Source: Candidatus Njordarchaeota archaeon
GTDB taxonomy: Archaea > Thermoproteota > JANJXX01 > Panguiarchaeales > Panguiarchaeaceae
Length of the DNA: 7,091 bases
Assembly (NCBI GenBank): GCA_029855985.1
Contig: JAGSHR010000201.1
Coordinates: 1-7,091, forward strand
Direction of reading: 5' to 3'
The notes below the pieces were generated by a model that did no database searches, had not been told where the DNA came from, and saw only the letters and a program-made list of their open reading frames with translations. A program made the position numbers and the translations under genes. Shown piece after piece: positions 1 to 7,091 of the stretch. The stretch's first letter is position 1, and the number at the start of each line of letters is the position of its first letter.

Positions 1-1542
1 GGACTCAACATTGGTAACATGTATGCTACAAATAGCACTATTTGGGTAAACAATTCATTCATAGAGATGGTTAACTCGATGCGAGTAGGCGTACACGTAT
101 ATAATTCAAGTATACAAATGCTCGGTCTGTTCAACTCAACCGGCTTCGTAGAGAAGTCAAACATTAGTTACATAGGCTGTGTAAACACTGTAAACCTAAC
201 GGTTATAAACTCCACCATGAAACAATTACTCTATATTAAACCCGTATACAGGCTCCCTCTAGCTGAATTATTCTATGTTACCGCGAATGACCCAAATAAA
301 TTTAATTTAGAGGTTTATAATTCAACCGTCACAGAGCTAATCTACAAGAGTTACAATATCAATGGTGCCGGTGAGGTACTGATAAACGGGGAAACAATCT
401 CTACGAGAGGTTTGTTGTCCACTGTAAACTCTACGGGGAAATATGTTAACACGGTATATAGAGGAATGGAGAGTAATGCATATAAGCTCGACGGGATCAT
501 GAAGGGATCCGTGGACTACAAATCCGTTCTTAGTAATGTGACAATAGCAGCGCTTGAAATCTCGCTACAACGCGATAATACGCCCCCAACAATAAGTGTT
601 AATCCAGGCTCTCTCCATTATGAGTTTGGCATGAAGGAATCAATAACGGTATTTGCGAATGATGATGTGATTCTTAAGTACATAGTTGTTAAATTAAATG
701 ATGTCCAAATATACCAATATGAGATATACAATAAACCCTTTGGCGTAAACCTACCCATCAGCAATTATATAAGTGAACCTGGTACGTACACTTTGAATGC
801 TACAGTAATTGATTTGAACGACAACACCGCAATTGTGACTGCAACAATCACAGTTGAACCCTCAGAGGCTCCTCAAATCGAGCAGAACATTAACTTACAG
901 ATATTCGAGCTGGGCATGGTTCCCGATAACATCACATGGAGAATCACGGAAAGTTACCCCAACTACTTTATCGTTAGGGTAAACGGAAGCGAGATCATGC
1001 AAGGCAACTATACCAACGGTCAATTGATAATCTTCAATACAAATAAAGAGATAACCTCGTCTGGCACGTACATAGTTAACATAACTGTATACGATCAAGC
1101 TGGAAATAAAGCCTCAAAGGAAGCTACAATAAAAGCGCTACCTGGGAAACCACCTCAAATATTAACATCCCCCAACGAAACAATCACGATAACCCAAGGA
1201 GAAACAATACAATTGAACTGGACAGCAACAGACGATTACCCGGGAACCTACGAGATTAAGGTAAACGGGACAGTTGTAACAAGCGGCAACTGGGACAACA
1301 ACCAAATAATCTCCTATAACTTTTACGGAGAAGAACCCGGAACATATGTTGTTGAAATATCATTCATGGATTTGGCAGGACACATAACAACTAGCACAGT
1401 GACTATCAAAGTTACTCCCCAAACCACTGGCGGTCTATGTATCGGTAGTGTTGAGCTAGCATTCGGTATAAGCCTAGCGGCGGTAGCTATCGTTTTACTC
1501 ATACTTATAAGAACAAAGAAATTGAAGGTTAGAAAGAAATAA
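1..1542 (+). CDS. Cell-surface glycoprotein, beta-helix plus three Ig-like domains, C-terminally membrane-anchored (5' partial)
   Basis: The frame is open from base 1, so the gene begins upstream; the ATG at 19 is only an internal Met. Residue numbers below count from it (507 aa). Residues 1-185 contain short repeated turns such as YNSSIQ, FNSTGF, INSTMK and YNSTVT, the pattern of a right-handed parallel beta-helix. Three Ig/cadherin-like beta-sandwich repeats follow at about 188-282, 283-376 and 377-470; each starts near a Pro-rich PPTI or PPQI turn and carries a PGTY or SGTY strand followed by D-x-A/N-G/D-x-x before a TITV/TIKV edge strand. A QTTGG linker leads to a transmembrane helix at about 476-497 and a short Lys/Arg-rich cytoplasmic tail. 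I count 18 N-x-S/T sequons, consistent with heavy archaeal N-glycosylation. The protein is therefore probably exposed on the outer face of the membrane or S-layer; a role in adhesion or polysaccharide binding is inference. It converges with the MFS gene 21 bp downstream. Confidence 0.85.
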   Translation, partial: GLNIGNMYATNSTIWVNNSFIEMVNSMRVGVHVYNSSIQMLGLFNSTGFVEKSNISYIGCVNTVNLTVINSTMKQLLYIKPVYRLPLAELFYVTANDPNKFNLEVYNSTVTELIYKSYNINGAGEVLINGETISTRGLLSTVNSTGKYVNTVYRGMESNAYKLDGIMKGSVDYKSVLSNVTIAALEISLQRDNTPPTISVNPGSLHYEFGMKESITVFANDDVILKYIVVKLNDVQIYQYEIYNKPFGVNLPISNYISEPGTYTLNATVIDLNDNTAIVTATITVEPSEAPQIEQNINLQIFELGMVPDNITWRITESYPNYFIVRVNGSEIMQGNYTNGQLIIFNTNKEITSSGTYIVNITVYDQAGNKASKEATIKALPGKPPQILTSPNETITITQGETIQLNWTATDDYPGTYEIKVNGTVVTSGNWDNNQIISYNFYGEEPGTYVVEISFMDLAGHITTSTVTIKVTPQTTGGLCIGSVELAFGISLAAVAIVLLILIRTKKLKVRKK

Positions 1543-2796: not shown

Positions 2797-2879
2797 TTTA
2801 AAATATTACAAGTATCTAAAGAATAGTATACATTTCATCCAAAATAATTATCTATGTGATTCTCTCATCTCAGCTTTAT
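2797..2879 (+). promoter_or_regulatory. Probable promoter and leader region of the CxxC-protein gene
   Basis: Two TATA-like elements face the + gene: the tract at about 2795-2806 (TATTTAAAATAT) and a weaker AATAGTATACA at about 2822-2832. They would give leaders of roughly 65 or 38 nt, both long enough for the Shine-Dalgarno at 2880 to be transcribed. I cannot choose between them. Confidence 0.35.
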
Positions 2880-2884
2880 GGAGG
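2880..2884 (+). promoter_or_regulatory. Shine-Dalgarno (GGAGG) that sets a TTG start
   Basis: GGAGG lies 7 nt before an in-frame TTG at 2892. The longer reading from GTG at 2856 has no such site and would bury the GGAGG inside the coding sequence, so the TTG is the better start. Confidence 0.7.
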
Positions 2885-2891
2885 ATTATTC

Positions 2892-3731
2892 TTGTCAACT
2901 AAAAGTGAATCAATTAAACTCTTAATGGTAAAATGTCCAAAATGCAACAAGACACTAAACCTAAAAGTTGACTTAGACCTACTAGAATATGTTGGAGGCA
3001 TAGCAAAAGTCGCAATATTTCACGGATCACCTCCACACAGTTTAATATTGTATATTGATAGGAGAGGAATGATTCGAGGGACCGAGGTAGCTGAATTTGT
3101 TGTGTTAATGGACAAAAGGGAGAAAGATCTATCGAAAGAAGAAATAGAAAAACTGAGAGACAGTTTGGGATCTGAAAGCTTATCTGCTCTTTTCAGTTCC
3201 TACATAGCTAATATGCCACTATATGTGGTATCCCAAACTTCACCAACGGTGTTCAAAAGGGTTCTAGAAGGAATCCTTGGTGAATTCTTCCCAGAAGTAA
3301 AGGTTATTTCAAACACAATCGCTGAAGAGTTTGAAATAGTTATTGTGAATGATGATTTCTACAGAAACACAAAGGATAAAATTAATGGGTTAGTTTTTGA
3401 TATGCAAAGCGGTTGGCTGCTAAGCAACGTAAGTCTAAAATATATGAAGAAATTAGTTAACAGGTATCTTGAGAATAAAAAACGGAGTCCAGAACGGTTG
3501 AAAACCGAAATCAAAGAGTTAAAGAGAAAATATGATCTGTTGTGGGAAGAAATTGTGAGCTTCAAGAACTTTTTCAAAGTTATAAAAGGATCGACTCGCA
3601 GGATAAGTTTAAAAAAACTAAAATCAAGATTTAACCTCTCAAATTCGGAGACAAAGTTCCTAATAGAGCTCATTAAGATAAGGGATAATGATGTTCACGA
3701 TATAATCAAGGATGACATAGGTATATTCTAA
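2892..3731 (+). CDS. Unrecognised protein with CxxC knuckle, coiled coil and possible winged helix
   Basis: I do not recognise this 279-residue soluble protein. A single zinc-knuckle-like pair, C15-P-K-C18, lies near the N terminus with no second CxxC; H44 and H49 in FHGSPPH could complete a metal site. They sit in a compact beta-rich stretch (about 38-73) ending LILYIDRRGMIRGTEV. The middle (about 80-190) is mixed alpha/beta, with strands such as EVKVIS and FEIVIVND and a possible further strand GLVFD. Residues about 199-222 are charged and heptad-like, a likely short coiled coil. Residues about 236-266 have the spacing of a winged-helix/HTH (SLKKLKSRFNLSNSETKFLIELI). There are no membrane segments or signal peptide. 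The gene is divergent from the MFS transporter, so a DNA-binding regulator is possible but unproven. Reading from GTG 2856 would add 12 residues; the Shine-Dalgarno favours TTG 2892. Confidence 0.75.
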   Translation: MSTKSESIKLLMVKCPKCNKTLNLKVDLDLLEYVGGIAKVAIFHGSPPHSLILYIDRRGMIRGTEVAEFVVLMDKREKDLSKEEIEKLRDSLGSESLSALFSSYIANMPLYVVSQTSPTVFKRVLEGILGEFFPEVKVISNTIAEEFEIVIVNDDFYRNTKDKINGLVFDMQSGWLLSNVSLKYMKKLVNRYLENKKRSPERLKTEIKELKRKYDLLWEEIVSFKNFFKVIKGSTRRISLKKLKSRFNLSNSETKFLIELIKIRDNDVHDIIKDDIGIF

Positions 3732-3996: not shown

Positions 3997-4959
3997 TTAT
4001 TGTTCGCTTCTCCTCCAGAGTTTTATCATGAAGAACAAATATGCTAGACCCACGAGAGTCATTCCCGCTGGGTTTTCTGCGGGGTTAGGGTGAGCTATTT
4101 CTATAATTGGTGCTAGGATTATGTGCCATAGTAGTACTCCAAAGATTATACCAACGTAGTGTTTGTCTGTTGCGAATTCCCAGTTAAACCTTGATAGGTA
4201 CCTGTAGGATAGATATAATTGCATCGCTCCCAATAACGCTATGATAACTGGGTTTTTCACAATGTATGGGCCAATCCAGAATATTGCGTACCATGTTATC
4301 ACCCATGTGAAACCAAAGAGCAATAATCTCTTAGGTGAAGGTAATTCAGCGGTTCCCCTACCTATATCATTAGGTAACCTGTATGCCGCATAAGTAAAAA
4401 CCCCGATCAAAATCAAACAAAGTAAATAGTACTCTAAACCCATTTGAAAATCCGTTAGAAACCTATTTAGAACAATAGTAGAAGCGATAAATGCAAAAAC
4501 GGCTGTAGCCTTCCCTCTTCTCCCCAGTAGTTCCTCGCCTTTAATGTGTGGAAACAACACTTCAACTAATACAACGGGGATCGTTATGCTGATGACTGCG
4601 TGGTATACAGTGAGTTCAAATACCCAAATCCAGTTGACACCTAACCATCTACCGAATGACCCTAATATTCCGAGATCAACCCAGTTTGGGTCAAAGAATG
4701 ATTTTACCGCGATGCCCTCCTCCCAGACACCATAAGCGGCTCCGACAAGTAACAGGGACGCTTTACCTTTATCCCATTTGACTATTAATTCTCTTGCAAG
4801 AACGGCTCCACACCCATAAAAGGAGATAAACAAGAGGAAGGCTATTGGGTTAAAAAACAGTAGTGGTGGGGTAGAACCAGAAAGCAATTCAGCGGTCATT
4901 GGGGATAATAGAAGTAATGCTATTGTTGCTTTTCTTTTCGTTGGATCCAATTTTAACAC
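3997..4959 (-). CDS. Polytopic membrane protein with Glu-Glu motif, possibly related to CPBP-type intramembrane proteases
   Basis: This 320-residue protein has about 8-9 hydrophobic segments and short charged loops. Striking motifs are SPMTAELLSGSTPPLLFFNP (residues 19-38), R56-E57 after a YGCGA helix, GAAYGVWE80-E81-GIAVKSFFDP, GRWLGVNW, and H120 in ELTVYHAVISI; H279 lies in a late helix (LLWHIILAP). Paired glutamates in one membrane helix plus a histidine in a later one resemble the catalytic pattern of CPBP (CAAX protease/bacteriocin-processing) glutamic intramembrane proteases, but the canonical EExxxR is absent: K85 is the nearest basic residue and there is no Arg at that place. The relation is therefore only a hypothesis, and a transporter-like or structural role is equally possible. 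The start is GTG with a promoter 26 nt upstream, which implies a leaderless or nearly leaderless mRNA. It lies 91 bp downstream of the NurA operon on the same strand but has its own promoter. Confidence 0.8.
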   Translation of the reverse strand: MLKLDPTKRKATIALLLLSPMTAELLSGSTPPLLFFNPIAFLLFISFYGCGAVLARELIVKWDKGKASLLLVGAAYGVWEEGIAVKSFFDPNWVDLGILGSFGRWLGVNWIWVFELTVYHAVISITIPVVLVEVLFPHIKGEELLGRRGKATAVFAFIASTIVLNRFLTDFQMGLEYYLLCLILIGVFTYAAYRLPNDIGRGTAELPSPKRLLLFGFTWVITWYAIFWIGPYIVKNPVIIALLGAMQLYLSYRYLSRFNWEFATDKHYVGIIFGVLLWHIILAPIIEIAHPNPAENPAGMTLVGLAYLFFMIKLWRRSEQ

Positions 4960-5050: not shown

Positions 5051-5674
5051 CTAATCCGAGAGAACTTTTTCGATTTCTCTCAGAGCCTCAATTAGACTAC
5101 CATAATCAAAGTTGCGCAGCGCGTCAATCACAGCATTAAGAATTGCTTCCTTCTCTTCAATTTTGCTGTTAAAGTATTCCGCGTGATTCATGAAGAATTC
5201 TCTCACATCAATATGATCTGCGCCTTCTAATAGGTAGTATTCTAGGAAAGTGAAATCCCAACTCCCTTCTGGTTTGAAGAATAAATCCAGGAAGTCGGGT
5301 TCTCGCAGTATGTAAACTCTATCGTGAAGTAAAGGCATTATCGATCTATAATGCTTTATTCTATTATTACGCAGAGTGCTTGTGTAGACTATTCTAGAAA
5401 CAAACTTGTGGTAGTTCTTTAGATCCGGGTAAGATTCATCGATTTTATCTCTCGGTTGTCTCAAAGGGGTAAAGGAAGAATAGGATGCTTCATGCGCTTT
5501 CTTTAAAACAATCCCCACGGGCCTAACATCGCCTGAATCAATAACAAGAATCGAACCTTTAGCCACCGTGTTGAATTTCTCTGGGTAAACAAAAACGTCA
5601 ATTAAGTTATCGTTAACGTTAGCGACCTCCCCTACAATATAATTCTCATTCGAGAAGAATTTTCCCCAACTCAT
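5051..5674 (-). CDS. HerA-type HAS-barrel protein without ATPase domain, encoded with nurA
   Basis: This 207-residue protein begins with a segment typical of the HAS-barrel at the N terminus of HerA helicases: YIVGEVANV (12-20), DVFVYPEKF (26-34), then GSILVIDSGDVRPVGIVLK (40-58). A second conserved-looking stretch, YHKFVSRIVY...MPLLHDRVYI (88-122), may complete the barrel. Residues about 125-207 are mainly helical and acidic and end in a possible amphipathic helix (SLIEALREIEKVL). No Walker A (GxxxxGKS/T), Walker B or arginine finger is visible; full HerA proteins are about 500 residues or more, so the ATPase core is wholly missing rather than frameshifted away, and the gene ends cleanly at TAG. 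Its ATG overlaps the nurA stop (ATGA), with a strong AAAGGAGG 8 nt upstream, so the two are co-translated. In HerA-NurA complexes the HAS region contacts NurA; by inference this protein binds NurA and acts as an adaptor, clamp or inhibitor, or recruits an ATPase encoded elsewhere. Confidence 0.75.
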   Translation of the reverse strand: MSWGKFFSNENYIVGEVANVNDNLIDVFVYPEKFNTVAKGSILVIDSGDVRPVGIVLKKAHEASYSSFTPLRQPRDKIDESYPDLKNYHKFVSRIVYTSTLRNNRIKHYRSIMPLLHDRVYILREPDFLDLFFKPEGSWDFTFLEYYLLEGADHIDVREFFMNHAEYFNSKIEEKEAILNAVIDALRNFDYGSLIEALREIEKVLSD

Positions 5675-6792
5675 ACAATCGGCCTCCTTTTCGATCTTCT
5701 TTTACCAGAATAAGCCATTTCAACGTAAGGTATTCCAAGCAGTCTTGCAGTTTCCCTCTCTATTAACTCTCTATCCTGGGATGTTAAGACAGCCCATTCA
5801 TGGGCCCTTTGAAGAGCGAGGGGATACCCCATTCCAATAATGGATTGGGCTAAAACTACCTTGTGGATGAAGTCGGCTTTGGATTCTAGGATTGATGGAA
5901 ACTCGACTCTGAAAACGTTTTTGTCTCGGATTTTCAGGTAGAAAGCACTTATCTCCATTCCTAACCCAGAGACAACCTTATTGTAAACCTTGAAAACATT
6001 GGATCTAGCAAAGTTGCTTAGATACAAGTCCATTATGGCTTTATCTTGAAGTAAACTTAACACTTCTGTTTTCTTGTTTTTCTTGGACTGATAAGTCCTA
6101 ACTAGGTCCGTGGAGTTAGTGTAAAAAACAGCAATAGGGTAGTAGCCATTACTGAGCACTAGGTTTAAGTGGTTGTTAACCATCCTAGCATACCGCGTCC
6201 TTGTCTCTTGGTCCCAAGATAATGTGAACAACAAGTTAAAGGATTCATCGTACAAGATGAACTTGTGGTGTGAAGGGTTTAGGTCCTCGAGGTGCCTTAT
6301 GAGAACTTCGTACTCGAATTTTTTTGAAAGAAATCTTTTGACTTCTCTTTCAGGTTTATCAACTATCACGTCAACCTCGTTTCCCCAACCGTGGGAATCA
6401 TTGCCGTAATTTTTGAACCAAAAACCAACATTAACGACGTTTAGGGAGTAAGAGAAGTGGCGACCCAAGCTATGTAGACTTCCATCAAAAGAATAAACAC
6501 CCACTTTCTCTCTTGTGAGGACATCGATTGCCCAATCCATGTTAACATTTTCGGGGTTGCAACAAGTTTTCTTACTAACGCTTTCAACAGGAATTAGTAT
6601 GCTTGGTTTCTTTGATAAATCGTAGTCCTCTACATTGGGGGTCAACTCGTCCTCTAAGATATTCACGAACTCTACTAACTCTAGTTTATAATTTCTAAGA
6701 CTCGCGGAATCGACCTTCTCCTTTATTTTCTCTAAAACTCTTAAAATTTTTATTTCTGATGAAGTAATTGCCAACGCTAAGAAACCCCTCAC
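5671..6792 (-). CDS. nurA: NurA-family 5'-3' nuclease
   Basis: NurA is an RNase H-like, Mn2+-dependent nuclease that, driven by HerA, resects DNA ends for recombinational repair with Mre11-Rad50. The 373-residue protein shows the family's landmarks in order: VGVYSFD103-GS (metal-binding motif I), the acidic strand ILYD182 (second aspartate), a YYPIAVFYTNST strand and FRVEFP near 294-299. Near the C terminus is GY323-PLALQRAH331-EWAV. The 8-residue Y-to-H spacing matches the Tyr/His pair of Sulfolobus NurA as I recall it. E160 or E162 is the likely remaining carboxylate. After D182 the usual Gly-Ser is replaced by Glu-Ser. Residues 10-55 are helical and charged, possibly a coiled coil; C77-C78 is an unusual adjacent pair; the tail (KRRSKRR) is very basic and may bind DNA. 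The start is GTG with no Shine-Dalgarno and a promoter just upstream. It is the first gene of an operon with the HAS-barrel gene; no herA ATPase, mre11 or rad50 lies within this window. Confidence 0.85.
   Translation of the reverse strand: MRGFLALAITSSEIKILRVLEKIKEKVDSASLRNYKLELVEFVNILEDELTPNVEDYDLSKKPSILIPVESVSKKTCCNPENVNMDWAIDVLTREKVGVYSFDGSLHSLGRHFSYSLNVVNVGFWFKNYGNDSHGWGNEVDVIVDKPEREVKRFLSKKFEYEVLIRHLEDLNPSHHKFILYDESFNLLFTLSWDQETRTRYARMVNNHLNLVLSNGYYPIAVFYTNSTDLVRTYQSKKNKKTEVLSLLQDKAIMDLYLSNFARSNVFKVYNKVVSGLGMEISAFYLKIRDKNVFRVEFPSILESKADFIHKVVLAQSIIGMGYPLALQRAHEWAVLTSQDRELIERETARLLGIPYVEMAYSGKRRSKRRPIV
5683..5690 (-). promoter_or_regulatory. Strong Shine-Dalgarno for the HAS-barrel gene
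   Basis: The minus strand reads AAAGGAGG, 8 nt before the ATG at 5674 and inside the last codons of nurA. It fixes the start and fits coupled translation of a leadered internal cistron, in contrast to nurA itself, which has no such site. Confidence 0.8.
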
Positions 6793-6903: not shown

Positions 6904-7091
6904 TTACTGTTCACTTTCCAAGAGGCTTTTGATTTCCTTTATTCTCTCATAGTCTGGTTCCCCATGCCTGTTTTTTATTTGTTCACCCTTCTTTGTCCCC
7001 AAGAATCGCTCTATTTTTTCCTTCAAAGCATCCATTGTTATTTTTTCTAAATCCTCTCTGCTCTTTATACCAGCGTAGTATAGGTAGGTGA
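6904..7091 (-). CDS. C-terminal end of an unidentified protein (5' partial)
   Basis: The minus strand is open from the window edge to a TAA at 6904-6906, giving 61 complete codons. The peptide starts TYLYYAGIKSREDLEKITMD and continues as charged, helix-forming sequence ending SLLESEQ. The AGIKSREDLEKIT stretch recalls a helix-hairpin-helix turn followed by a helix, and HGEPDYERIKEI suggests a final helix. This is too little to name a family. It is upstream of nurA on the same strand but separated by 111 bp holding a terminator and a promoter, so it is probably not in the same operon. It was read directly from the sequence as it has no start codon in the window. Confidence 0.7.
   Translation of the reverse strand, partial: TYLYYAGIKSREDLEKITMDALKEKIERFLGTKKGEQIKNRHGEPDYERIKEIKSLLESEQ

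What the first reader, a model, noticed from the sequence alone, without database searches (positions are those of the whole stretch)
5051..6792. NurA nuclease operonic with an ATPase-less HAS-barrel protein
NurA is normally paired with HerA, a full HAS-barrel plus P-loop translocase. Here the overlapping downstream gene keeps the HAS-like barrel but has about 80 helical residues in place of the ATPase, and no Walker A appears in the gene. The 4-bp overlap and strong Shine-Dalgarno argue for obligate stoichiometric production. This could be a motorless NurA regulator or clamp, a split HerA whose ATPase is encoded elsewhere, or a second NurA system distinct from the canonical repair operon.
Basis: partly seen in the sequence, partly recalled or inferred. 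Interest (0 to 1): 0.7.

Follow-up and report, generated by a model that had tools for sequence, protein, structure and literature searches.

The report
Motorless HAS-barrel partner of NurA-HerA
Next to the DNA-break-trimming nuclease NurA this archaeon carries a small protein that is only the docking domain of NurA's usual motor HerA, and relatives carry the same small gene right beside a HerA gene, so it looks like an overlooked third part of a DNA-repair machine rather than a substitute for the motor.

Summary
Window 5671-6792(-) encodes a NurA-family nuclease, followed (4-bp overlap, AGGAGG Shine-Dalgarno) by a 207-aa protein (5051-5674) without P-loop. Its model is a HAS barrel plus about 80 mostly helical residues; the best structural matches are HerA complexes, and its family profile matches the HerA N-terminus (hhalign 97.6%, E 2e-11).

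The protein is neither a truncated HerA nor shown to replace the motor. I found its family (201-223 aa) in 22 other archaeal genomes: in 22 of 22 within 17 bp of a herA gene, in 20 of 22 exactly between nurA and herA, with mre11-rad50 following in 9 of the 11 whose wider context I read. It is best read as a third, HAS-only subunit of the NurA-HerA end-resection machine, probably acting where HerA's own HAS ring docks NurA (published structures). In this window herA is not next door; the rest of the genome is not held. Nine library searches found no description of it. New variant of a known kind, uncommon (12 of 398 genomes sampled from one phylum), function inferred and untested.

The parts
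5671..6792 (-). nurA, 373 aa, GTG start, no Shine-Dalgarno seen before it; D103 (FDGS), E160, D182 (YDES), Y323 and H331 kept
5051..5674 (-). HAS-only protein, 207 aa, 'third subunit' candidate
   Evidence: profile-profile match to HerA N-terminus 97.6%, E 2e-11; model pLDDT 85.7; 42 of 50 Foldseek rows from entries titled HerA
5267..5647 (-). HAS-barrel part (about residues 10-136)
   Evidence: aligned range of HerA entries on the model; residues 61-90 are low confidence
5054..5248 (-). C-terminal helical part (about residues 143-207) where HerA has its RecA-like ATPase
   Evidence: DSSP on the model; no P-loop
5671..5674 (-). ATGA: stop of nurA overlapping start of the HAS-only gene
5683..5688 (-). 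AGGAGG Shine-Dalgarno, 8 nt before the ATG of the HAS-only gene

Best explanation
The 207-aa protein is a dedicated HAS-only relative of the HerA docking domain and a third subunit of an archaeal NurA-HerA DNA end-resection machine. Supported by computation: it has a HAS barrel and no ATPase; its family lies next to herA in 22 of 22 genomes and between nurA and herA in 20. Inferred: its barrel sits at the HerA HAS ring, where NurA docks, as an adaptor or cap between the NurA dimer and the HerA hexamer, and its helical tail contacts NurA, DNA or Mre11-Rad50. The likely effect is to recruit NurA, hold it in register, or gate DNA passage into it. In the window's lineage the gene stayed with nurA while herA moved elsewhere (inferred; the rest of the genome is not held).
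For: Gene order nurA-small-herA in 20 of 22 genomes and small-herA in 22 of 22; gap small to herA at most 17 bp, nurA to small at most 99 bp, most of them overlapping when the first possible start is taken. mre11-rad50 follow in 9 of 11 whose context I read (G001, G002, G003, G374, G465, G379, G024, G595, G422; not in G470, G485). The 18 of the 22 genomes that were searched with a HerA profile all hold HerA. The gene stays linked to herA when nurA is not adjacent (G470, G595) and to nurA when herA is not adjacent (window), which suits a bridging part. Fold and profile match the HerA HAS barrel; the hhalign control against NurA gives 0.04%. In D. radiodurans and T. kodakarensis HerA-NurA the HAS domains carry the NurA interface (PMC9960219 and PMC12977600, passages read).
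Confidence: 0.65

Rival explanations
1. Motorless NurA complex: in this lineage NurA works with the HAS-only protein as clamp or regulator, without any HerA.
For: In the window the pair stands alone: no herA by profile, no Walker A, and the next gene on that strand (3997-4959) is an unrelated, apparently membrane protein.
Against: All 22 other genomes with the gene have herA beside it, including the nearest rows in the tree of the small protein (G374, G465, G379, G024; G379 and G024 are flagged there as long branches). A 7 kb window cannot show absence of herA.
Confidence: 0.1
2. Negative regulator: the free HAS domain competes with HerA's HAS ring for NurA (or caps the HerA ring) and restrains nuclease activity until Mre11-Rad50 presents an end.
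For: Same fold as the docking domain; co-encoded with nurA by overlap in the window; docking through HAS domains in published structures.
Against: No biochemical data; the position between nurA and herA suits a structural subunit just as well.
Confidence: 0.17
3. Split HerA: the HAS barrel and the ATPase of one HerA are encoded as two genes.
For: The small protein covers the barrel part and has no ATPase.
Against: In the 11 relatives read in full the neighbouring HerA is 527-604 aa, and the stretch before its Walker motif is what the small-family profile aligns to, so it keeps its own barrel. The small proteins also have a helical tail of their own.
Confidence: 0.04
4. Decaying or chance ORF.
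For: Function untested; rare family.
Against: Homologues at 99, 84, 57 and 57% identity over 99-100% of the length and lengths of 201-223 aa over 37 members; confident fold.
Confidence: 0.01

Closest known systems
HerA N-terminal HAS-barrel domain (PF09378), e.g. Sulfolobus solfataricus HerA 4d2i, T. kodakarensis HerA 9x1l/9x1m, D. radiodurans HerA 7wrw
   Same: Same barrel fold in the model, same gene neighbourhood as nurA, detectable profile homology
   Different: No RecA-like ATPase, no Walker motif; own C-terminal helices; exists beside a HerA gene in relatives
NurA-HerA-Mre11-Rad50 end-resection operon of thermophilic archaea
   Same: 9 of 11 relatives read with context show these genes in one cluster
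   Different: One extra gene between nurA and herA; in the window herA, mre11 and rad50 are not adjacent
Pyrobaculum nurA-csm6-herA clusters (PMC3396285, passages read)
   Same: A gene lies between a nurA and a herA paralogue
   Different: That gene is named csm6 and lies near CRISPR arrays; I looked for no CRISPR link here and did not compare the two genes
SIR2-HerA and DUF4297-HerA antiphage complexes (8wld, 8zit and others)
   Same: Entries of this kind give the best structural matches
   Different: Their HerA is a complete ATPase with other effectors (recalled and from entry titles); the three window proteins scanned match no PADLOC family

Membership tests
NurA nuclease (PF09376) | Profile match over the curated cut-off | tested here: met
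   E 4.3e-6, 26.8 bits against 21, residues 238-335
NurA nuclease (PF09376) | NurA fold | tested here: met
NurA nuclease (PF09376) | Active-site acidic residues, Tyr and His (D58, E114, D131, Y291, H299 of SsoNurA, recalled) | tested here: inconclusive
   Conserved D103, E160, D182, Y323, H331; only the Tyr/His stretch was aligned to 2ygk, at a weak score (E 0.58); the first three were matched by order and conservation
NurA nuclease (PF09376) | 5'-3' exonuclease activity with HerA | not testable with these tools
   -
HAS-barrel (PF09378), 207-aa protein | Pfam match of the window protein itself | tested here: not met
   No family at E <= 10 and none as a member of A4
HAS-barrel (PF09378), 207-aa protein | Family members match PF09378 over cut-off | tested here: inconclusive
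   1 of 26 family proteins scanned: P0025 26.3 bits against 25.2; below it P0026 24.3, G422 19.3, P0022 17.8 and one A4 member at E 0.18; the rest no match
HAS-barrel (PF09378), 207-aa protein | Barrel fold as in HerA and ATP synthase | tested here: met
HerA translocase, 207-aa protein | Walker A P-loop and RecA-like ATPase | tested here: not met
   No Walker A in any frame of the window nor in 37 family members; no DUF87 match
Canonical nurA-herA-mre11-rad50 cluster (window) | herA, mre11 or rad50 adjacent | tested here: not met
   No such gene in the window by profile
Canonical nurA-herA-mre11-rad50 cluster (window) | Homologous pair lies in that cluster in relatives | tested here: met
   20 of 22 nurA-small-herA; 9 of 11 with mre11-rad50

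The most novel reading that the evidence does not exclude
In this lineage NurA has parted from HerA altogether and works as a two-protein, ATP-independent nuclease whose HAS-only partner replaces the translocase ring as DNA-holding clamp, a machine derived from a three-part NurA-HAS-HerA complex that I found nowhere described.
Probability: 0.1. Interest if true: 0.78.

Novelty: new variant of a known kind. Interest (0 to 1): 0.5.

Why it matters
HerA-NurA is studied as a two-protein machine (six HerA, two NurA). A conserved HAS-only gene at the junction of nurA and herA in several archaeal lineages suggests that some of these machines have a third part at the very interface that couples motor and nuclease. 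That gives a direct handle on how end resection is switched on and kept in register, and names a family (about 200-220 aa, largely without Pfam annotation) that can be expressed and tested.

Tried and rejected
Searching the window's own genome for herA: none is held. Sequence searches of the 207-aa protein alone against Pfam, NCBIfam, PADLOC, PHROGs and PDB sequences gave nothing useful; a PDB sequence search with the family profile also gave only chance rows. No relative of either protein was confirmed in the viral contigs. The idea that the 61-aa fragment upstream (6904-7089) is the end of HerA, Mre11 or Rad50 was dropped: chance-level scores (E 0.03 or worse). The promoter and terminator scan is of the bacterial type and says little for an archaeon. 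Taxonomy of the window stays open: NurA groups with P0006, P0007 (named Candidatus Njordarchaeia) and P0008 (support 99/97); the small protein groups with genomes drawn from the phylum of a Geothermarchaeota MAG.

Rows dropped before counting. G234 (E 0.0011, a 327-aa frame, profile 135-194 only; no match to my profiles)., first phylum pass: 19 of 398 genomes, of which the same 12 were kept; dropped were G495, G399, G539, G563 (HerA itself) and G497, G499, G086 (E 0.001-0.005, not resolved)., second pass: 18 of 398, 12 kept; G495, G399, G539, G583, G568 are HerA itself; G619 is a 252-aa HAS-only-like frame at a contig end, left out because its context cannot be read; a second match in G508 is a 52-aa frame with stops. 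The genome search samples are draws from larger groups, and their completeness is not told.

Papers: 15466593 (the FtsK-HerA comparative genomics paper, recalled), PMC390275 and PMC4376295 are not held, so an earlier mention there cannot be excluded.

Full report

Relatives. Protein searches gave 4 relatives of the small protein, and with a profile 14, namely the same 4 and 10 more. One scan of genome contigs with the NurA alignment found four loci. Three read nurA - small - herA - mre11 - rad50 (L001-L003, one Nitrososphaeria and two Geothermarchaeota MAGs); the fourth ends inside nurA. The small-protein profile then found the family in 11 of 300 genomes of that class and 12 of 398 of the phylum, one genome (G003) being shared: 22 genomes in all. 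In the order of L003, 12 genomes were examined: 10 have the gene, one (G004) breaks off inside nurA, and one (G030) shows no NurA match. Gene order, read by profiles: small next to herA in 22 of 22, gap at most 17 bp; nurA directly before small in 20 of 22, gap at most 99 bp. In the other two, G470 has a nurA 2.5 kb beyond herA on the opposite strand, and G595 has none on the contig read (6.9 kb) but NurA matches on two other contigs. The herA frame is full length in 19 (548-629 aa open frames in 18; 585 aa in G002); in G035, G006 and G027 the locus ends inside it. Of 11 genomes whose wider context I read, 9 continue with mre11-rad50; G470 and G485 do not. Where the small gene is lacking, as in G495 and G563, nurA and herA overlap directly. 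The 18 of the 22 genomes searched with a HerA profile all hold HerA.

Reading. The relatives show a HAS barrel in addition to HerA. The partner HerA proteins are 527-604 aa where read in full (11 genomes), and the region before their Walker motif is what the small-family profile aligns to, so this is not a split HerA; Pfam itself sees that region of HerA only weakly or not at all. The small gene keeps company with herA when nurA is not adjacent (G470, G595) and with nurA when herA is not adjacent (window); that is the pattern expected of a part that touches both. In published HerA-NurA structures the HAS domains of the HerA hexamer carry the NurA dimer: in D. radiodurans each NurA touches four HAS domains, and in T. 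kodakarensis the alpha1 helices of the HAS domain and the loops before them are involved (PMC9960219 and PMC12977600, passages read). A free HAS domain is therefore most likely an adaptor, cap or competitor at this junction. Which of these it is cannot be told from sequence. The stretch that aligns with the docking helix is the least certain part of the model.

The window's lineage. Its NurA groups with P0006, P0007 (Candidatus Njordarchaeia MAG) and P0008 (99/97), and its small protein with P0001-P0004 (100/100). Within a set of nine (97/99) the small protein sits with G374, G465, G379 and G024, all four of which have the complete five-gene cluster; G379 and G024 are flagged as long branches whose place is unsure. 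Loss of synteny in the window's branch is thus the simplest account; loss of herA itself is not excluded, because no genome is held.

Novelty. Nine library searches turned up no listing that describes a HAS-only gene between nurA and herA; I read passages of five of the papers, not the whole texts, and older comparative papers are not held. The domain, the nuclease and the operon are known; the third component appears not to be described.

Noticed in passing
L072 (G619:C169) 1189-1944 +: A 252-aa HAS-only-like frame (family profile E 2.5e-7) at a contig end, outside the nurA-herA pattern that could be read; no Pfam match.
   Followed up: partly
18 genomes: 14 of 18 genomes show two or more NurA-family matches, so several nurA genes per genome are common; Pfam even misses some operon copies (G379 none, and in G021 only a second copy).
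   Followed up: no
window 2856-3731 (+): 291-aa protein with no family match over cut-off in Pfam or NCBIfam, none in PADLOC, and only a weak one in PHROGs (E 0.023, unknown function).
   Followed up: partly
window 3997-4959 (-): 320-aa protein, by its sequence apparently multi-pass membrane, no Pfam or PHROGs match; it is the next gene downstream of the HAS-only gene.
   Followed up: partly
window 1-1542 (+): Surface-type protein with weak Ig-like or PKD-like matches below cut-off and, by its sequence, a C-terminal membrane anchor; open at the window start.
   Followed up: no
L053 (G470) 5995-12115: small-herA pair with a nurA 2.5 kb further on the opposite strand and no mre11-rad50 beside it: a rearranged version of the cluster.
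   Followed up: yes
window 6792: nurA begins with GTG and no Shine-Dalgarno is visible before it, unlike the gene after it.
   Followed up: no
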